From Chloroflexota bacterium (lineage in GTDB: Bacteria > Chloroflexota > Dehalococcoidia > Lucifugimonadales > Australimonadaceae): a DNA stretch of 34,911 bases. A program made the translations under genes and the position numbers. The stretch is taken from contig JADFQE010000013.1 in NCBI GenBank assembly GCA_022561985.1, positions 1 through 34,911 on the forward strand. Reading direction: 5' to 3'. Below are positions 3 to 31,373 of this stretch, one piece after another (within the stretch, counting starts at the first letter, position 1; each line of letters opens with the position of its first letter). A model generated the notes under the pieces. It saw only the letters and a program-made list of their open reading frames with translations, was not told where the DNA came from and did not search any database.

Positions 3-1091
3 CAGGCGGAATGGGATGCGCTGATTGCAGCCGCGAAGGACGAGGGCCAAGTGGTCTTGGTGTTTGGCGGCGCGGCGGGACGGAATTACCGTCCGGTGGC
101 CGCGTTCTTCCAGGAGAAGTTTGGCATCGAAGCCGTCGTCTCGACCGGCAGCGGCAGCGCGCAGTCAGATCGGATCCTGGCCGAGCGGGAGGCCGGGCAA
201 TATCTGGTGGACGTCATGTGGGTGGGTGGGGGCTCAGCGAACGCACGCCTGGTCCCCGCGAATGCGCTTGATCCCATCGCGGACCTGTTCATCCACCCGG
301 AGGTGACGGATCAGTCACTCTGGTTCCGGGGGAAGCACTGGTACGCGGACGAGCCACAAAAGTACGTGTTCTCTTTGTCAGCAGAAACTGGCCCGATAAA
401 GGACATGCGGTACAACACGAACTTGGTGACCCAGGAGGACCTGGATGGCATCAACTCCGTGTTCGACTACCTGGACCCGAAGTGGAAGGGCAAGATCGTG
501 GCACTCTCTCCCATCGGCGGGTCCGTAACCTTCTTCACATCGTATGTCCACCCCGAGATCGGCAAAGAGTGGATTGATAGATTCGTTTCGCCGGAGTTGG
601 ACGTTACCTTCCTCCGGGATTTCCGTCAGATCGTGGACGGCATTGCAAAAGGTAAGTTCCATTTCGGCATCGAGATTGGCGGCGCTGGCCGCGACCTCGA
701 CGCGCTGGCGACGCTTGGAGCGCCGGTCGAAAAGTTCCCGTGCACCGTGGCGAACGTGTGCGTCAAGGAATTAAAAGAAGCTGGTGTCATAAGCTCCACG
801 GATAGCTCGAACAACATGATGGTCCCGACCAATCGGCCGCACCCTAATGCGGCGAAGCTGTTTGTCAACTGGTTCCTCACGAAGGAGGGACAGACGATCA
901 TGCACACGCTGTCCGGGGAGAACCCGGAGCAGACGCTACGGATCGATGTGACCGACCTTGGCAAGACACTCCCGTACCAGCGCAGAGACCCAAATCGCGA
1001 ATACTTCTTCTTCAGCGCCGACCCGGTCTACGTGGCCAAGCGGGCAGAAGCGCTCGACTACGCGAAGGCAGCCTATAACGCAACACACTAG
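3..1091 (+). CDS. Extracellular solute-binding protein, ABC type (5' truncated)
   Basis: This is the C-terminal part of a periplasmic-type substrate-binding protein of the family that includes Fe(3+)-type binding proteins (SBP_bac family). Its true start lies left of the window and the frame is open from base 3. It aligns along its whole length with the complete lipoprotein at 23811-25037. Shared stretches include EGQVVL.FGG.AGRN, the ANALDPIA.LFIHP segment and FDYLDPKWKGKIV. The missing part should therefore be the signal peptide, lipobox and linker. No permease or ATPase gene is adjacent. A Rieske oxygenase starts 143 bases downstream on the same strand, so the two may be co-transcribed and the ligand may be that enzyme's substrate (inference). 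The ligand cannot be told from sequence. The family is fairly certain. Confidence 0.85.
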   Translation, partial: QAEWDALIAAAKDEGQVVLVFGGAAGRNYRPVAAFFQEKFGIEAVVSTGSGSAQSDRILAEREAGQYLVDVMWVGGGSANARLVPANALDPIADLFIHPEVTDQSLWFRGKHWYADEPQKYVFSLSAETGPIKDMRYNTNLVTQEDLDGINSVFDYLDPKWKGKIVALSPIGGSVTFFTSYVHPEIGKEWIDRFVSPELDVTFLRDFRQIVDGIAKGKFHFGIEIGGAGRDLDALATLGAPVEKFPCTVANVCVKELKEAGVISSTDSSNNMMVPTNRPHPNAAKLFVNWFLTKEGQTIMHTLSGENPEQTLRIDVTDLGKTLPYQRRDPNREYFFFSADPVYVAKRAEALDYAKAAYNATH

Positions 1092-1210
1092 AGCCGAAAC
1101 CCACCGGCACGCCGACGGGCGGCGGAGAGGGCTTCCTTGGTCGGATAACGTGGAGGGGGACGACGGAAAACCGCGTGGAGGCGCCTGCGAGATTGTAGGG
1201 ACCCTCTAGG

Positions 1211-1227
1211 TACAATAGTGTAGGAGG
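1211..1227 (+). promoter_or_regulatory. Possible -10 element and Shine-Dalgarno of the first Rieske gene
   Basis: TACAAT at 1211-1216 matches a bacterial -10 box, and AGGAGG at 1222-1227 lies 7 bases before the ATG at 1235. No good -35 box is visible at the usual distance. The short spacing means a transcript from this -10 would begin almost at the Shine-Dalgarno. The ribosome site is convincing; the promoter is weak. Confidence 0.4.
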
Positions 1228-1234
1228 TCGCGGT

Positions 1235-2386
1235 ATGGCAAACGAGACATCATCGAGTGAGCCCCGGGCAGCGTCCACGAAGGAAGAATGGAACGAGTTC
1301 GCCTATATGGGGCCTGGAACTTTAGCGGGGCGCTACATGCGTCTCTTTTGGCATCCGGTCTATGTCTCGGACGATCTGCCGATCGGACGGCCCAAGCCCA
1401 TCCGGATCTTGGGGGAGGACTTCACTCTTTATCGAGGAGAGTCCGGTGCGGCGCACGTGGTCGACTTCCGGTGTGCACACCGGGGCACCCAGCTGTCCAT
1501 CGGCTGGGTGGAGGGCGACGACGTGCGGTGCCGCTACCATGGCTGGAAGTACGGTCCGGACGGTCAGTGTACCGAACAGCCGGGGGAGCCGGAGCCGTTC
1601 TGCGAGAAGGTCCGGATCAAGAGTTACCCGACGCAGGAGTACCTGGGATTCGTCTTCGCCTACCTGGGCGAGGGCACTCCCCCCACATTCCGGCGTTACC
1701 CGGCGTTCGAGCGAGACGGAGTGCGACTCGTCACCCATTGGGAGCGTGGGTATAACTACTTCAACGCGGCCGAGAACGACGCCATCCATGTCTTTTTCAC
1801 CCATCACCGTACCCACGGCAGTTGGCGAGACATGCAACTCCCTCGCATAGAGGCCGAGGAAACGCCTTCCGGTCTCGCCACGATTAGGGTATGGCCGGAC
1901 GGGAGAAGAACTCAAACGCGCACGCTCATGCCCAATATGAGTTATCGCAAGGCTCGTAATTCCAATGCTGGTCGAGGGAACAACCTCTCCTGGAAAGTCC
2001 CTATCGATGACCACCACTTCAGTCAGTTCAACCTGGAATGGTTTCCCTTTGGCGAGAAGGCCGAGCGCTACGTTCAGCGGCGCAAGGAGTTCGCAAAGGA
2101 CCAGACGTTCGTAGACGAGCTCGTTGCGAAGGTCTTCAGTGGGGAGCTCCATTTGGATGACATCCCGGTCGAAGGTGCGGACGTCCACACCATCAACCAA
2201 GTGGAAGACGGGTCCACGCAGCGCGGGCAGGGTGTGATAGCGGACCGCACGGCCGAGCGCCTAGGGCGGACCGATGCGCCGGTCATCCTCCTACGGCGCA
2301 TATGGCAGCGGGAGCTTCGGGCGCTCGCCGAGGGGCGGCCGCTCAAGCAGTGGGAGCTGCCTGAGGATGATGAAGCAGCGGATTGA
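1235..2386 (+). CDS. Rieske [2Fe-2S] ring-hydroxylating oxygenase, large subunit
   Basis: This is a 383-aa oxygenase component that should insert O2 into an aromatic or related organic substrate using electrons from a reductase not encoded here. The N-terminal Rieske domain has the full ligand set C80-x-H82 and C99-x2-H102. The catalytic mononuclear iron site is visible as N177, D182, H185 and H190, in D-x2-H-x4-H spacing. The C-terminal QGVIADRTAERLG stretch matches the second Rieske protein at 25156-26400. That stretch is typical of phthalate-4,5-dioxygenase/VanA-like enzymes acting as homo-oligomers without a beta subunit. The ATG has an AGGAGG site. The gene follows a solute-binding protein. 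Codon use looks less GC-extreme than in the rest of the window. Family certain, substrate unknown. Confidence 0.92.
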   Translation: MANETSSSEPRAASTKEEWNEFAYMGPGTLAGRYMRLFWHPVYVSDDLPIGRPKPIRILGEDFTLYRGESGAAHVVDFRCAHRGTQLSIGWVEGDDVRCRYHGWKYGPDGQCTEQPGEPEPFCEKVRIKSYPTQEYLGFVFAYLGEGTPPTFRRYPAFERDGVRLVTHWERGYNYFNAAENDAIHVFFTHHRTHGSWRDMQLPRIEAEETPSGLATIRVWPDGRRTQTRTLMPNMSYRKARNSNAGRGNNLSWKVPIDDHHFSQFNLEWFPFGEKAERYVQRRKEFAKDQTFVDELVAKVFSGELHLDDIPVEGADVHTINQVEDGSTQRGQGVIADRTAERLGRTDAPVILLRRIWQRELRALAEGRPLKQWELPEDDEAAD

Positions 2387-23810: not shown

Positions 23811-25037
23811 CTAGCGCGATGCTTTGAAGGCGTCGGCCGTGAATGCGGCCGCCTCCAGACGCTGCGCAACGAGCTCGGGGTCGGCGTCGAAGAAGTAGTA
23901 CGACTTCCCCTCCACGCGCCGGAACGGCTCGGAAACCTTACCCCAGTCCGCCACGTCCAGGCGGAGCGTCGGCTCCGGCTCTATCTCGGCGAGCGTGTGC
24001 ATGAGCGTCTGACCCTCCTGCGAGAGCCACCAGTTCACCCACAGCTTCGCGGCATTCGGGTTCGGCGCGTTTTTCGGGCGGGTGATGAGGTCGAGACTGC
24101 TCGATGCGCTGAGCTCCGCGCCCTCCTTGAAGTCCTTGAGGAGCCGCTTGACCGGCGCGCCGAGGGTTGCGAGCGAGTCGAGGTCCGTCAGGGCGCCGCC
24201 GAGGGCGATGTGGAACTTGCCCTTGGCGAGCCCATCAACCATGAAGGTACGGCTGTCGGAGAAGGTCACCGCCAGGTCCGGCGAGAAGAACGCCTCCGTC
24301 CACTCCCTGCCGATGTCCGGGTGGACGTACACGGTGTAGTACGTGTTGCCACTGCCCCCGGCGGTGGGATTGAGCGAGACGATCTTCCCCTTCCACTTCG
24401 GGTCCAGGTAGTCGAAGACGGAGTTGAACCCGTCGATGTCCTCCTGCGTGACGAGGTCCGTGTTGTACCGCATCCCGAGCGTCATCGGGTCCGGGGCCGC
24501 AGCGAAGGCGAAGATGTACTGCTGCCCCGGGTCCGCGTACCAGTGCCTGCCTCCGAACCAGAGGGACTGATCCAGCACGTCCGGGTGGATGAACAGCTCC
24601 GCGATGGGGTCGAGTGCGTTCGCCGGGATCATCCGCGTGTTCACCGACGTCGCACCGCCGTACATCGCATCCACCAGGTACCGGCCGGCCGTCTGCTCGG
24701 CCAGCACTCGGTTCACGTGCGCGCTGCCGCTGCCGGTGGCGACCACCGTCTCGACGCCGAACTTCTCCTGGAAGACGTCGGCGATCGGACGGAAGTTGCG
24801 GCCGGCAGACCCGCCGAAGGTCAGGACGACCTGACCCTCCGCCTGCGCGGCCTCGATCAGCGCGGCCCATTCGGCCTCGAACAGGGCGGCCGCGTCGGGC
24901 GTGGGGGCCGCCTGGGGGGGCGGCGTTGCGGTGGGCGCGACCGTCGGAGTGGCCGTGGGGTCACCGCCGCAGGCCGCGAGCGAGAGCGCCATCGCCACAG
25001 CGGTGAGGCTCAGGAGTCCGAGATGCTTCCCTCTCAT
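23811..25037 (-). CDS. Extracellular solute-binding lipoprotein, ABC type
   Basis: This is a 408-aa complete paralogue of the truncated protein at the left edge. The signal peptide ends in the lipobox LSLAAC with C23, followed by a Thr/Pro-rich linker (about 26-50). The binding domain then starts with EAEWAALIEAAQAEGQVVL. The fold is that of Fe(3+)/anion-type binding proteins, but no iron-binding tyrosine pair can be assigned with certainty. The ATG at 25037 has GGAGGG upstream. There is no permease or ATPase nearby. It is divergent from a Rieske oxygenase across 118 bases, a second pairing of these two families in the window. Confidence 0.92.
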   Translation of the reverse strand: MRGKHLGLLSLTAVAMALSLAACGGDPTATPTVAPTATPPPQAAPTPDAAALFEAEWAALIEAAQAEGQVVLTFGGSAGRNFRPIADVFQEKFGVETVVATGSGSAHVNRVLAEQTAGRYLVDAMYGGATSVNTRMIPANALDPIAELFIHPDVLDQSLWFGGRHWYADPGQQYIFAFAAAPDPMTLGMRYNTDLVTQEDIDGFNSVFDYLDPKWKGKIVSLNPTAGGSGNTYYTVYVHPDIGREWTEAFFSPDLAVTFSDSRTFMVDGLAKGKFHIALGGALTDLDSLATLGAPVKRLLKDFKEGAELSASSSLDLITRPKNAPNPNAAKLWVNWWLSQEGQTLMHTLAEIEPEPTLRLDVADWGKVSEPFRRVEGKSYYFFDADPELVAQRLEAAAFTADAFKASR

Positions 25038-25088
25038 GATGTGACCCTCCCACCGCTGGGCGCTTGCCGGCGCGCGGATTCGCACGGC

Positions 25089-25109
25089 AGTATAGCGCGC
25101 CTGAGGCGC
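25089..25109 (-). promoter_or_regulatory. Candidate promoter -10 and operator of the solute-binding gene
   Basis: The minus strand carries TATACT (plus 25089-25094), a good -10 box about 50 bases before the ATG. Three bases upstream of it lies a dyad, GCGCC-TGA-GGCGC at 25097-25109, in the position of a repressor site between -10 and -35. No clear -35 is seen. Confidence 0.4.
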
Positions 25110-25155
25110 AAACAGCTTAAAGTAGGGGCAGAATGCAAGTTACGGAGGTGCGCGG

Positions 25156-26400
25156 ATGCTGGCGACCGCTGACAACGACCTGATCACACAGACGGGACCG
25201 GGCACGCCCATGGGCGATGTGTTCAGGCGGTACTGGCATCCCGTGGCGCTCTCCGAGGAGATCCCCACGCCCGGGGGGAAGCCGGTGCAGCTCAAGGTGC
25301 TCAGCGAGGACCTCGTGCTCTTCCGCGACGATTCCGGCCAGCCGGGGCTGCTGGGGCTGCGCTGCTCGCACCGCCTCACGTCGCTCGCCTACGGGCGGGT
25401 CGAGGACGGCGGGATCCGCTGCCCCTTCCACGGGTGGCTCTACGACGTCTCGGGGCGGTGCTTGCAGCAGCCCGGCGAGCCCGAGGAGAGCTCCTTCAAG
25501 GACAAGATCCGTCACACGGCGTATCCCTGCCGGGAGATGGGCGGGATGATCTTCGCCTACATGGGCCCGCCGGAGAAGCAGCCGCCGCTCCCGCGCTTCG
25601 AGACGTTGGTGCGGGAGGATGGGTCACGGAAGACGGACTACTACCCCATCAACTCCAACTACCTCCAGAACCTGGAGGGGGCGCTTGACCCCATCCATTC
25701 GACGTTCCTGCACATGGACAAGTGGTCCGAGGTGAAGGACGCGGTCCTCGCGCGGCCGTATAAGGACGTGGACCTTGCGGTGACCGAGTGGGGGGTGTGG
25801 CGCCGCTCCCTCCTCCGGCGCGCGGACGGCGAGGACCTCGCCTCCTACGGCCATTTCTTCATGCCCGGCGGGTTCATGGGGATCCGCGTGGCGGGAGAGC
25901 CCGCGCCCATCGAGGGTGCCGGACCCGTGGTCCGGAAGCTCCAGTCGTGGTACGTGCCCGTCGACGACGAGCACTGCAAGCGGTTCATCGCGGCCTTCGT
26001 CTCCCTGGCCCAGACGGACGGCGCCGAGGTCGACCTGGGCGCATCGAGAGAAGCCGTCTTGAACCCCCTGGCCATTCCCGGCCCCGAGAACGACTACTTC
26101 AGGGACTACGAGGGGGTGGACACGATCTGCGGCATCCCGCTGCGGACCGCCCACGACATGGGCTCCCTCAAGGGATACCTCGCCCAGGACAGCATGGTGA
26201 ACGAGACGCAGGGAGCCATCGCGGACCGCAGCCGGGAGCACCTCGGCGTGGGCGACCGGCTGCTGATCATGACCCGCAAGCAGCTCCGGCAGGCGGTCGA
26301 GGACGTGGGCAACGGCCTGGACCCGCGCTTCGCCAACCCGGAGCCCGACGACGAGGGGCTCGTCCGCGTGAATGGGGCCGATGCGATGGAGGCGCGCTAG
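25156..26400 (+). CDS. Rieske [2Fe-2S] oxygenase, phthalate-4,5-dioxygenase-like
   Basis: This is a 414-aa oxygenase large subunit. Rieske ligands are C70-x-H72 and C89-x2-H92. The mononuclear iron site is D178, H181 and H186 within NYLQNLEGALDPIHSTFLH. The N-terminal FRRYWHPVALSEEIP and the C-terminal TQGAIADRSREHLG stretches are typical of the phthalate-4,5-dioxygenase OphA2/Pht3 group. GGAGGTG at 25144-25150 fixes the ATG. The next gene is a convergent SDR whose stop lies 3 bases away. A reductase partner is not encoded in the window. Substrate unknown; a carboxylated aromatic is a reasonable guess. Confidence 0.93.
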   Translation: MLATADNDLITQTGPGTPMGDVFRRYWHPVALSEEIPTPGGKPVQLKVLSEDLVLFRDDSGQPGLLGLRCSHRLTSLAYGRVEDGGIRCPFHGWLYDVSGRCLQQPGEPEESSFKDKIRHTAYPCREMGGMIFAYMGPPEKQPPLPRFETLVREDGSRKTDYYPINSNYLQNLEGALDPIHSTFLHMDKWSEVKDAVLARPYKDVDLAVTEWGVWRRSLLRRADGEDLASYGHFFMPGGFMGIRVAGEPAPIEGAGPVVRKLQSWYVPVDDEHCKRFIAAFVSLAQTDGAEVDLGASREAVLNPLAIPGPENDYFRDYEGVDTICGIPLRTAHDMGSLKGYLAQDSMVNETQGAIADRSREHLGVGDRLLIMTRKQLRQAVEDVGNGLDPRFANPEPDDEGLVRVNGADAMEAR

Positions 26401-27445: not shown

Positions 27446-28243
27446 ATGAACAATCCCCCCTTCGGGCCCGAGGACCTCAAGGAGCCGCCGCTCAGCGGGC
27501 CGGACTTCCTGCGGCTCCTGAGCGCCGAGCGCCAACGCCTGTACCCGGACCCGCCGCCCTTCTATCAGGAGCTGTCCAAGGGGACGCTCGCCCGCGAGCT
27601 CGTCGGGCTCTGGGTCAAGAACCAGTACGTCTACTGGGAGAGTGACCTCGTCTACAGCACGGCCGCCATCTTCTGCAAGACCAACGAGGAGGACACGAGG
27701 ACCCACATCCTCCGCAAGATGGTCTGCATCGAGGGCAGGGAGATCGTCAACGACCTCGTCGGGTGGACGACCCCGGCGTACGAGGAGCTGTGGCTCCGCC
27801 TCGGCGAGGCGCTCGGGGTGAGCCGGGACGAGGTCGCCGCCTGGGACACGTTCACCCGCACCCACTTCGCCACGTCCACCCTGCGGCTCCTGTCGCGCTA
27901 CTGGGAGTGGACCTGGCTGGACGGGGTCGCTGGCCTCTATGCGGGCGACCTCCTCGGCCGGGACCACCTCGGCGCGGCGCGCGACGCCCTCGAGCGACAC
28001 TACGGCCTCTCCGGCGACGCCCTCGCCTTCTTCGACGCCTACCTGGGCGACGTGGGCGAGGACATACCGTGGGAGGAGGAGACGCTGGCGCACTGGGCCT
28101 GCACGCGCGAGCGGCAGCTCACGGCGGCGCGCGCCTTCCGCAACCGGCTCGACATCGAGTACCAGATGGTCCTGCCGCTGCACGCGGCAGCCACGGGGAC
28201 GACGCCGCTTCAGGTCCCGGCCGGGACCACGCCAGGAGTGTAA
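27446..28243 (+). CDS. PqqC/TenA-like helical-bundle protein
   Basis: This 265-aa protein matches PqqC along its length: a FYQELSKGTLARELVGLWV segment, VKNQYVYWESDLVYSTAAIF, then a C-terminal FRNRLDIEYQMVLPLH. The heme-oxygenase-like seven-helix fold of PqqC, TenA, CADD and diiron oxygenases is therefore expected. PqqC's active-site histidine run is not conserved, so pyrroloquinoline quinone synthesis is unlikely. No other pqq genes are present. The ATG at 27446 has GGGAGAAGG upstream. The next gene, 29 bases on, encodes a second probable member of the fold. Together they may form a heteromeric oxidase acting on the product of the Rieske or SDR steps (inference). Confidence 0.75.
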   Translation: MNNPPFGPEDLKEPPLSGPDFLRLLSAERQRLYPDPPPFYQELSKGTLARELVGLWVKNQYVYWESDLVYSTAAIFCKTNEEDTRTHILRKMVCIEGREIVNDLVGWTTPAYEELWLRLGEALGVSRDEVAAWDTFTRTHFATSTLRLLSRYWEWTWLDGVAGLYAGDLLGRDHLGAARDALERHYGLSGDALAFFDAYLGDVGEDIPWEEETLAHWACTRERQLTAARAFRNRLDIEYQMVLPLHAAATGTTPLQVPAGTTPGV

Positions 28244-28272
28244 GCGGCTGGGGTTTGAGAGGAGGCACGCGC

Positions 28273-29013
28273 ATGGCAGCCAGCAAGAGCGAGACGAGGG
28301 CAGCGTCACCCGAGGAGTTCATCGAGGAGCTCGAGCGCATCCGCACCGAGTTCCTGGACGGCGCTTCGCCCTGGGGCCGCGGACGCAAGCGCGGTGCCCA
28401 GACGAAGGACGAGATCGCGGAGGGCAAGCGCAGGAGCCACGTGGGCGCCGACGGCAACCACCGCTTCGAGGGCGAGCGCTACCTCAACGCGCAGGACAGG
28501 GCCGTCCGGCGCCAACAGCTCCGCAAGCTCGTGGACGAGGGCGGGCAGACCTCCGTCGGCGGGCCGCTGCCGAGCCATCCGGCCATGAGCAAGTGGCACT
28601 CCAACGAGTTCGGCGTGAGCGACGAGGAGATCGCCGGGCTGGAGATGGAGGACCTGAGCCCCGAGTCGCTCGTCGCCCTGGGCTGGTGGTACCTGCTCCA
28701 GCGGACGTCGCCCTGGGCCGTCGCCCTGGGCAGCGCGCTGGTGGGCGAGGGCTCCAAACGGCTCCCCGGCGCCCACGAGCACTTCACGCTGCTGATCGAC
28801 GAGGCCCGCGCCGAATACGCCAAGCTGGGGATCAAGGACATCGACCGGGCCGTCCAGCTCATGATCGAGCACGCGCCCTTCGGCGTGGACATGGAGCACG
28901 CGATGTTCGCCGAGGAGATCGTGAGGGAGTTCATCGACACCCCGGAGCTCCAGGACGAGATGCGCCGGGCGTTCATCCTGACCCTCGCCCGCAACTCGCG
29001 GGGGCGCATCTAG
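28273..29013 (+). CDS. Second TenA/PqqC-like protein (iron-containing redox enzyme-like)
   Basis: This 246-aa protein has a charged, Arg/Lys-rich N-terminal 95 residues without recognised domain. An all-helical C-terminal part starting near LVALGWWYLLQRTSPW carries IEHAPFGVDMEHAMFAEEIV. The H-x5-D-x2-H pattern there resembles metal-binding helices of heme-oxygenase-like diiron enzymes. GGAGG at 28261-28265 supports the ATG at 28273. It lies 29 bases after the first PqqC-like gene and is surely co-transcribed with it. The family call is less certain than for the first gene. Function unknown. Confidence 0.6.
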   Translation: MAASKSETRAASPEEFIEELERIRTEFLDGASPWGRGRKRGAQTKDEIAEGKRRSHVGADGNHRFEGERYLNAQDRAVRRQQLRKLVDEGGQTSVGGPLPSHPAMSKWHSNEFGVSDEEIAGLEMEDLSPESLVALGWWYLLQRTSPWAVALGSALVGEGSKRLPGAHEHFTLLIDEARAEYAKLGIKDIDRAVQLMIEHAPFGVDMEHAMFAEEIVREFIDTPELQDEMRRAFILTLARNSRGRI

Positions 29014-29093: not shown

Positions 29094-30386
29094 ATGAAGA
29101 AGACCATCGGCGCCATCGCCGCCCACTTCGTCCGGCTGTTCTCGCCGCTGCGCCATCGGAACTTCCGTTTCTACTGGGCCGGCCTGGTGGCGCAGGTCGG
29201 CGGACAGCAGATGATGGCCGTCACGCTGGGCTGGCTGGCGTTCGACCTCTCGGGGTCGCCGCTCACGCTTGGCATGATCAACCTGCTCCAGGCGGCGCCG
29301 CGCATCCTGCTGAACCTCCTGGGTGGCGCGATGGCGGACCGGTTGGACCGGCGGTTGATCATCACCCTCGGGCAGACGGGGGCGGCGCTCGTCATGGTGA
29401 CGCTGGCGGTCCTCACGACGACCGGCGCGATCGAGATCTGGCACCTCGGCGCCGGCGCGGTGGTGATCGGCTTCGTCCTCGCCTTCGACGAGCCGAGCCG
29501 CCAGGCCCTGCTGCCGAGTCTGCTGCCCAACCGGTCGATGCTCGCAGAAGCCATCCCGGTCGTGTCGATCGCATGGCAGCTCAACCGGATCGTCGCGCCG
29601 GCGGTCGCCGGGTTCGTGATCGCGGCCTCCGGCGCCGGCACGAGTTTCTTCATCTCGGCGGCGGGGGCGGCGACGATGGCGGCCCTCGTGCGGATGATCC
29701 GCCTCCCGCACGTCTCCAGACGCTCCAAGCAAAGTTTGCTGCGCACCGCCATCGAGGGCGCGGTCTACGTCCGGCGGAACCCGGTCTTCCGCGTGGTTAT
29801 CGGCTTGGCGTTCTTCAACAGCATCTTCGCGCTGGGCTACATGCTGATGATGCCGGTGTTCGCCGCCGACGTTTTCGGGGTGGACTCCCGCGGTCTGGGG
29901 GTGATGTATTCGGCGGCCGGAGCGGGCGGCATCTTAGGCCTGCTGACCGTCTCGCCCCTGGTGCGCGGGTTGGGGCCTGGGCGCGTGATCGTCGGCGGTC
30001 TCGGTCTCTTCGCGGGCTCGCTCATCGCCTTCGCCCTGAGCCCCACCTACCTGCTCGCCCTGGGATTCTTGGCGGTGGCCGGTTATGCGGGCCACCTCTA
30101 CACGACGAGCGGCGACATGGTCCTCCAGATGTTCGTGCCCGACGCGCTCCGGGGGCGTGTGATGGGGCTCTACGCGATGCTGTGGGCCGTCATGCCGCTG
30201 GGCGCCGCGGGCCTGAACACGGCCGCGAGCTTCATCGGCGCGCGGTACGCGCTCGCCGGCGGCGCGAGCCTGGTGCTGCTCGCGGCGATCACCGTCGCGG
30301 CGGTGGCGCCTGGGCTCCGGCGCGTGCGCCTGCCCGACGCCCCAGCGCCTGCCGACGAGCCCGCAGCGCAGCCGGCGCGGCCATGA
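29094..30386 (+). CDS. MFS transporter, MFS_3 type
   Basis: This 430-aa major facilitator of the EntS-like efflux group has the N-terminal FSPLRHRNFRFYWAG, loop motif GGAMADRLDRRLI, AFDEPSRQALLPSLLP between helices 4 and 5, and PDALRGRVMGLY in the second half. About 11-12 helices are predicted. The long plus frame reaching back to 27939 is a shadow of the preceding genes. The ATG at 29094 is the first sensible start, and a TATACT at 29068-29073 may be its -10 box. It may export the substrate or product of the adjacent oxidation cluster. Confidence 0.88.
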   Translation: MKKTIGAIAAHFVRLFSPLRHRNFRFYWAGLVAQVGGQQMMAVTLGWLAFDLSGSPLTLGMINLLQAAPRILLNLLGGAMADRLDRRLIITLGQTGAALVMVTLAVLTTTGAIEIWHLGAGAVVIGFVLAFDEPSRQALLPSLLPNRSMLAEAIPVVSIAWQLNRIVAPAVAGFVIAASGAGTSFFISAAGAATMAALVRMIRLPHVSRRSKQSLLRTAIEGAVYVRRNPVFRVVIGLAFFNSIFALGYMLMMPVFAADVFGVDSRGLGVMYSAAGAGGILGLLTVSPLVRGLGPGRVIVGGLGLFAGSLIAFALSPTYLLALGFLAVAGYAGHLYTTSGDMVLQMFVPDALRGRVMGLYAMLWAVMPLGAAGLNTAASFIGARYALAGGASLVLLAAITVAAVAPGLRRVRLPDAPAPADEPAAQPARP

Positions 30387-30467
30387 CGCCCCACCCACAC
30401 GACCGCCTCCCTCCGAACGATCCCCCTCGCGCCTCTCACCGGGCGCGGGGTTAGCTCGGCGTCCTCG

Positions 30468-31373
30468 TTGTCCTGGATCGCCATCGCGCTGGTCGCCGCG
30501 GCCATCTCCGCGGTCGTTAACATCCTCGACAAGACGGTCATCCACCGCTACGCGACCTCCCCGCTCACGCTCCCCCTGCTCATCGGTATCTCGCAGACGG
30601 CCGTCGGACTGAGCGTGCTCGCCGCCGTGGGCACGCCGCCCGAGGCGACGCCGCAGGCGGCCGGGTGGGCGGTCGGGTCCGGCGTGCTCTTCGGCCTCGG
30701 CGGCCAGCTCCTCATCCGGACGCTGTTCACGCAGGAGGTGTCGAGGGCGATCCCGGTCTATCAGACGTTCCCCGTGTTCGCGGCGCTCATCGCGGTCGTG
30801 TTGCTGGACGAGGTGGTCACGACGCCGCAGTGGGCGGGGATCGGGGCCACGGTGGCCGGTGCGGTCGCGCTTTCTGTGCGGACCGACGCGGGATACCGGA
30901 CGCTGTTCCTCCACCGGAGTTTCGCCGTCCTGATGCTCGCGAGCCTGCTCACGGGAGCCGCCCACGTCACGGGGAAGGCGGCCGTGAGCGAGCTGCCGGT
31001 CCTCTATACGCACGGGCTCCGGATGCTGGCGCTGGGGGCCGTGTTCTTGGCCTTCAACCTCCGGGCGGTACCGCTACGGGAGGTGGCCGGCTTCGTCCGC
31101 ACACGCAGCCCGGCGCTGCTCTTCGTCGGGGCGAACGAGCTCCTCATCGCGAACGGCAGCCTGCTGCTCACCCTGTGGGCGCTCTCGCTGGGGCCCGTCT
31201 CGCTGGTGAGCGCGCTCATCGGCACGCGGGCGCTCTACGTCGTCCTCTACAGCACCGGACTCGCGCTGGTGTGGAAGGGGGCGCTGGGGGAGGAGACGTC
31301 GCCGCGATCGGTCGCGGTGAAGGCAGGCTCGACGGCGCTGATCGTGGCGGGCGTCGCCGGCGTCGCGCTCTAG
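30468..31373 (+). CDS. EamA/DMT-family transporter
   Basis: This 301-aa drug/metabolite transporter has about ten hydrophobic helices arranged as two five-helix halves. The first half includes the VYQTFPVFAALIAVVLLDE stretch and the second half includes GPVSLVSALIGTRALYVVL. This is the typical EamA pattern. The start is a TTG at 30468; no better codon is available after an in-frame upstream region without similarity. It lies 81 bases after the MFS gene on the same strand. Substrate unknown. Confidence 0.85.
   Translation: MSWIAIALVAAAISAVVNILDKTVIHRYATSPLTLPLLIGISQTAVGLSVLAAVGTPPEATPQAAGWAVGSGVLFGLGGQLLIRTLFTQEVSRAIPVYQTFPVFAALIAVVLLDEVVTTPQWAGIGATVAGAVALSVRTDAGYRTLFLHRSFAVLMLASLLTGAAHVTGKAAVSELPVLYTHGLRMLALGAVFLAFNLRAVPLREVAGFVRTRSPALLFVGANELLIANGSLLLTLWALSLGPVSLVSALIGTRALYVVLYSTGLALVWKGALGEETSPRSVAVKAGSTALIVAGVAGVAL

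What the first reader, a model, noticed from the sequence alone, without database searches (positions are those of the whole stretch)
27446..29013. Two consecutive PqqC/TenA-like genes without pqq or thiamine context
The first protein follows PqqC closely but lacks its active-site histidines. The second has a strange basic N-terminus and an H-x5-D-x2-H helix like heme-oxygenase-like diiron enzymes. Only 29 bases separate them. A complementary pair, one degenerate and one with a metal motif, suggests a heteromeric enzyme of new function.
Basis: partly seen in the sequence, partly recalled or inferred. Interest (0 to 1): 0.62.

Follow-up and report, generated by a model that had tools for sequence, protein, structure and literature searches.

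The report
Paired diiron-type oxygenase with degenerate partner
Two neighbouring genes in an uncultured SAR202-type bacterium encode related helical-bundle proteins, one keeping all six metal-binding residues of a known iron-oxygenase family and the other having lost them, and they are so consistently inherited side by side that they probably form one two-part oxygen-using enzyme for breaking down carbon compounds.

Summary
Gene A (27446-28243, 265 aa) is a PqqC/CADD-fold protein with no invariant histidine in 20 homologues. Gene B (28273-29013, 246 aa) matches no curated family, but profile comparison and structure prediction place it in the same fold. It carries all six ligands of heme-oxygenase-like dimetal oxidases (HDOs): E89, H102, E159, H200, D206, H209, invariant in 20 homologues. 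The window's H-x5-D-x2-H is the standard H-x3-D-x2-H with a two-residue insertion; distant homologues have the standard spacing.

A and B lie 2-106 bp apart in 20 loci from Chloroflexota and Acidimicrobiaceae, in either gene order. They co-occur across surveyed genomes, and a natural B-A chain co-folds with pTM 0.86. Rieske oxygenases, Amidohydro_2 enzymes, LigB, UbiD, or CoA-linked acid-degradation genes surround them.

Best explanation: B is an O2-activating dimetal subunit, and A is a metal-free paralogue completing a heterodimer where known HDOs are homodimers; it probably acts in catabolism of aromatic or carboxylic compounds. Metal, complex and reaction are unproven. New variant of a known kind: no heteromeric HDO turned up in the papers searched, and a 2026 review says the HDOs studied need no protein effector.

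The parts
27446..28243 (+). Gene A: PqqC/CADD-fold protein, 265 aa, without the HDO or PqqC histidines; proposed metal-free partner subunit
   Evidence: PF03070 46 bits and TIGR02111 52 bits; profile match to HDO set 99.5%; A part of fused model Z 27.6 to PqqC 1otw, 25.1 to CADD 1rcw; no invariant His in 20 homologues
28273..29013 (+). Gene B: HDO-fold protein, 246 aa, with the complete six-residue dimetal ligand set; proposed catalytic subunit
   Evidence: profile match to HDO set 97.7%, E 1.6e-12; model pLDDT 83.4, Z 17.5 to PqqC 3hlx and 16.9 to CADD 1rcw; six ligands invariant in 20 homologues
28537..28539 (+). codon of B E89, first proposed metal ligand (DEGG motif)
28576..28578 (+). codon of B H102, second proposed ligand (SHP motif)
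28747..28749 (+). codon of B E159, third proposed ligand (GEG motif)
28870..28899 (+). codons of B H200 to H209: H-x5-D-x2-H, last three proposed ligands (H200, D206, H209), with the two-residue PF insertion
25156..26400 (+). Rieske oxygenase with LigXa-type C-terminus, probable pathway neighbour
   Evidence: PF00355 and PF19301; a Rieske gene directly follows the pair in L072, L079, L080, L095
26403..27251 (-). short-chain dehydrogenase between the Rieske gene and A; link to the pair not shown
   Evidence: PF00106
23811..25037 (-). solute-binding protein of an ABC importer, divergent from the Rieske gene; possible substrate uptake
   Evidence: PF13416 just under its cut-off, 26.0 against 27; related genes near the pair in L048-L050 and near the lone B in L090

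Best explanation
A and B are the two subunits of one heteromeric enzyme built on the heme-oxygenase-like (PqqC/CADD) fold. B binds a dimetal centre (Fe/Fe or Mn/Fe) through E89, H102, E159, H200, D206 and H209 and activates O2. A is a paralogue that lost the histidines; it takes the place of the second protomer of the homodimer seen in known HDOs and is kept for structure, substrate pocket or gating. The enzyme most likely carries out an O2-dependent oxidative step (C-C cleavage/decarboxylation, desaturation or hydroxylation) on an aromatic-derived or carboxylic acid substrate, in catabolic islands that also hold Rieske oxygenases, Amidohydro_2 enzymes and CoA-linked acid-degrading enzymes. 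Shown here: shared fold, ligand set in B, its loss in A, conserved pairing, recurrent neighbours. Inferred: metal, complex, reaction. Separate estimates: B is a dimetal HDO-type protein 0.85; A and B form a complex 0.75; catabolic oxidative role 0.55; any particular reaction 0.2 or less.
For: B aligns with CADD-like HDO profile A5 (97.7%, E 1.6e-12) with all six ligands on ligand positions; all six invariant in 20 homologues. A aligns with the same profile (99.5%) but has Y/W, D, Y/F/L/V/I, V/A/L/I/S, D/H/N at five of those positions. Folds. Adjacent in 20 loci in two phyla with the order reversed in some; 11 of 11 A-bearing genomes of the order have B; distance matrices correlate, r 0.78. Natural B-A readthrough chain of L056: pLDDT 88.5, pTM 0.86 over 510 residues. 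Known HDOs are homodimers (PMC11363339). Neighbours.
Against: No control pairing was folded, and AlphaFold2 may dock any two homologous bundles. The window clade's two-residue insertion breaks the helix carrying H200-D206-H209. One genome (G159) has an extra B without an adjacent A. A has 48 invariant positions, so it may have an activity of its own. Neighbour genes differ between lineages, which weakens any claim of one reaction.
Confidence: 0.6

Rival explanations
1. A and B are two separate enzymes doing consecutive steps, each a homodimer, as FlcE and FlcD do; A would be a metal-free PqqC-like oxidase or other enzyme with a site of its own.
For: A is as strongly conserved as B (48 and 37 invariant positions), including many charged and aromatic residues; FlcE/FlcD are a precedent for two HDO-fold enzymes in one pathway (PMC11363339); G159 has a second B with no adjacent A.
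Against: A shows neither the HDO ligands nor the PqqC histidines; the near-perfect pairing across changing neighbours and the confident co-fold favour a complex.
Confidence: 0.25
2. B has lost catalysis in the window's lineage: the two-residue insertion spoils the metal site, and the pair is a scaffold, binding or regulatory protein.
For: The helix carrying H200 and D206-H209 is broken at 200-204 in the model, and the spacing departs from H-x3-D-x2-H.
Against: All six ligands stay invariant in the insertion-bearing sequences; variable ligand spacing and flexibility of this helix are described in HDOs (PMC11363339; PMC13108848).
Confidence: 0.1
3. A is a true PqqC or TenA homologue serving PQQ or thiamine metabolism, with B an unrelated neighbour.
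For: A matches TIGR02111 over nearly full length and PF03070 above its cut-off.
Against: 52 bits against the PqqC cut-off of 240; PqqC H24 and H84 positions are P and I; no histidine is invariant; none of the neighbours scanned is a pqq or thi gene; A travels with B.
Confidence: 0.03

Closest known systems
HDOs of the CADD / 4-aminobenzoate synthase group (CtCADD, NePabS), with UndA, BesC, SznF, HrmI
   Same: Fold and the six-ligand 3H/3C set in B
   Different: Known ones are single-gene homodimers needing no protein effector (PMC11363339, PMC13108848) and mostly biosynthetic; B has a longer E-to-H loop, a two-residue insertion in the last motif in the window clade, and a constant degenerate partner
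PqqC (TIGR02111)
   Same: A and B share the fold; A aligns over nearly full length
   Different: A is far below the PqqC cut-off and lacks its histidines; PqqC works without metal, while B has a full ligand set; no pqq genes seen nearby
FlcE/FlcD pair of fluopsin C biosynthesis
   Same: Two heme-oxygenase-fold enzymes in one pathway, one with a changed ligand set (PMC11363339)
   Different: FlcD keeps a mononuclear iron site and is a homodimer; A has lost the histidines, and the surroundings here are catabolic

Membership tests
[quoted passage not shown]
   Window-B model: Z 17.5 (3.0 A, 211 aligned) to PqqC 3hlx, 16.9 (2.8 A, 202 aligned) to CADD 1rcw, 14.0 to UndA 4wwj
[quoted passage not shown]
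   Profile alignment to HDO set; E89, H102, E159, H200, D206, H209 invariant in 20
[quoted passage not shown]
   Window B has H-x5-D-x2-H; L054, L056, L078, L079, L080, L090, L091, L093 B's have H-x3-D-x2-H; variable spacing is reported for HDOs (PMC11363339)
[quoted passage not shown]
   Needs protein
[quoted passage not shown]
   No Pfam match for B, nor usefully for any of 14 B homologues, at E up to 1-10; the profile is one route to the family, not the ligand-based definition
HDO, for A | Six-residue ligand set | tested here: not met
   H to Y/W, E to D, H to Y/F/L/V/I, D to V/A/L/I/S, H to D/H/N; no invariant His
PqqC (TIGR02111), for A | Score above the equivalog cut-off of 240 bits | tested here: not met
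   52.4 bits
PqqC (TIGR02111), for A | Active-site histidines (H24, H84, H154 of K. pneumoniae PqqC; roles of H24 and H84 from my own knowledge) | tested here: not met
   P34, I95 and non-conserved H174 in the alignment; conservation
TENA/THI-4/PQQC superfamily PF03070, for A | Score above the gathering cut-off | tested here: met
   46.3 bits against 22

The most novel reading that the evidence does not exclude
The first obligate heterodimeric HDO: a dimetal O2-activating subunit that works only with a degenerate paralogue, in an undescribed oxidative step of aerobic breakdown of aromatic or carboxylic organic matter by SAR202-type bacteria and some Acidimicrobiaceae.
Probability: 0.42. Interest if true: 0.75.

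Novelty: new variant of a known kind. Interest (0 to 1): 0.56.

Why it matters
HDOs are known mostly as single-gene biosynthetic enzymes acting on amino and fatty acids. A heteromeric version in catabolic islands would extend the family to organic-matter degradation, show that an HDO protomer can become a non-metal partner, and give a protein marker (NHRFEGERY...LRKLVDEGG) for following it in metagenomes. SAR202 bacteria have been proposed to oxidise resistant dissolved organic matter (PMC6946804), but which enzymes do so is largely open; this pair is small and testable.

Tried and rejected
Direct Pfam, NCBIfam and PADLOC scans and PDB sequence searches with B gave no usable match; relatedness came from profile-profile comparison and folding. 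BLASTP of A against B shows no significant similarity (E 0.26), and their direct profile comparison is weak (75.7%), so their relation rests on both matching the same HDO profile and on fold.

My first two translations were off by one base and were repeated. A plasmid search with B found nothing.

G131 (L060), a B without A, was rejected as evidence that B lives alone: upstream of B the contig carries genes that read like a phage terminase and portal protein (my reading of the sequences, not searched), so it is a chimeric assembly or an insertion. The A hit in G152 (L098) is an 81-residue remnant in an 82-residue open frame, not an intact A without B.

In the joint MAFFT alignment the first-glutamate column is shifted by a gap, so for E89 I rely. 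Some minus-strand gene-caller choices (overlapping antisense ORFs in GC-rich DNA) were discarded where homology decided.

Paper searches for heteromeric HDOs, or HDOs in aromatic degradation, gave none; the library holds open-licence papers only.

Full report
What is there. Two ORFs on the + strand, A 27446-28243 (265 aa) and B 28273-29013 (246 aa), are separated by 29 bases, each with a ribosome-binding-site-like stretch before its ATG. Overlapping antisense ORFs of similar length exist in this GC-rich DNA, but homologues elsewhere settle the frames.

What each protein is. A reaches PF03070 (46.3 bits, cut-off 22) and aligns with PqqC over nearly its full length, but at 52 bits against an equivalog cut-off of 240. 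B matches no curated family. Seven single-gene proteins from related genomes, each with H-x3-D-x2-H, served as a yardstick; their profile hits solved 4-aminobenzoate synthases, PqqC, BesC and UndA. Against this profile B scores 97.7% (E 1.6e-12) and A 99.5% (E 7.9e-23). Folding agrees: the window-B model matches PqqC and CADD, and the A part of the fused model matches them more strongly.

The metal site. In one search E89, H102, E159, H200, D206 and H209 of B fall on the six ligand positions, and all six are invariant in 20 B's. The window's H-x5-D-x2-H arises from a two-residue insertion (PF); B's from L054, L056, L078, L079, L080, L090, L091 and L093 have the standard H-x3-D-x2-H. In the model the insertion breaks the helix between 199 and 205. 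The 2026 HDO review notes that this core helix is flexible in many HDOs (PMC13108848), and the FlcD paper notes variable ligand spacing (PMC11363339), so the insertion does not exclude a site. In A the positions other than the first are Y/W, D, Y/F/L/V/I, V/A/L/I/S and D/H/N, with no invariant His. A is not decaying: 48 of its positions are invariant.

The pair. Strong A hits occur in 11 of 147 genomes of the order, all with B; B occurs in 12. The twelfth, G131, has phage-like genes joined upstream of B. A collection-wide pattern scan found 17 B loci, in Chloroflexota/SAR202/Dehalococcoidia and Acidimicrobiaceae. In the phylum and Acidimicrobiia samples every genome with intact A has B; G152 keeps only an A fragment. 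In the 20 loci with both genes the gap is 2-106 bp; the order is A-B in the window's genus and in L091, and B-A in the rest. G159 has one extra B without an adjacent A. Three genomes of genus g3 carry two diverged pairs, each with its own A and B. Distance matrices of A and B correlate (r 0.78, none of 2000 permutations as high), though shared descent alone can give this.

Complex. In L051, L054, L056 and L058 B and A are in the same frame, so reading through the stop gives a natural B-linker-A chain. AlphaFold2 on the L056 chain gave pLDDT 88.5 and pTM 0.86 over 510 residues, with low confidence only at the N-terminus and the linker. A pTM that high means that the relative placement of the two domains is predicted with confidence. 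Interface details could not be read, and no control pairing was run.

Surroundings. Recurrent neighbours are Amidohydro_2 enzymes (next to the pair in L048-L050, L091, L095; near it in L051-L053, L055, L079); Rieske oxygenases, some with LigXa-type C-termini (directly after the pair in L072, L079, L080, L095; one gene away across an SDR in the window; near it in L048, L050, L057); a LigB ring-cleavage-type dioxygenase (L080; farther off in L054 and L056); and UbiD (L050). In L051-L053, L055 and L059 the pair sits among HbpS-like, CoA-transferase III, acyl-CoA dehydrogenase, CitE-type lyase, MaoC/mesaconyl-CoA-hydratase-like and MmgE/PrpD genes. These are catabolic neighbourhoods; SAR202 genomes are known for expanded ring-hydroxylating dioxygenases (PMC6946804).

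How it most likely works. B binds two metals and activates O2; A replaces the second protomer and shapes or gates the site. [quoted passage not shown] A heteromer with a metal-free partner would therefore be a new variant. The reaction is not determined: known HDO chemistry plus these neighbours suggests oxidative C-C cleavage/decarboxylation, desaturation or hydroxylation of an acid, and I give no single reaction more than 0.2.

Limits. Metal, complex and reaction are inferred. The literature search covers open-licence papers only. Gene neighbours were called with a simple script of my own and checked by Pfam for 40 genes, so some gene boundaries may be off.

Noticed in passing
window 3-2386 and 23811-26400: The window holds two modules of a solute-binding protein gene with a Rieske oxygenase gene; the members fall in the same clusters.
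   Followed up: partly
L060:1-1703: In genome G131 the 5' part of B is joined to genes that read like a phage terminase and a portal protein: a chimeric contig or an insertion.
   Followed up: partly
L098:1498-1743: Genome G152 keeps only the last 81 residues of A, with no B found by the profile search: a decayed remnant of the pair.
   Followed up: partly
L053:3501-14432: A conserved operon of PEP-mutase/ICL-type lyase, HbpS-like, CoA-transferase III, acyl-CoA dehydrogenase, CitE-like, B, A, MaoC, MmgE/PrpD, SDR and FAD-dehydrogenase genes may be an undescribed CoA-linked acid-degradation pathway.
   Followed up: partly
L007:9237-9989: The window's own genome has another single-gene HDO-like protein with HISVDEEH, close to two Rieske genes and a solute-binding protein on contig C127.
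   Followed up: partly
window 29094-31373: An ORF of 430 aa (29094-30386, reads like an MFS transporter) lies between B and an EamA-like gene in the window; in L047 and L060 the EamA-like gene directly follows B.
   Followed up: no
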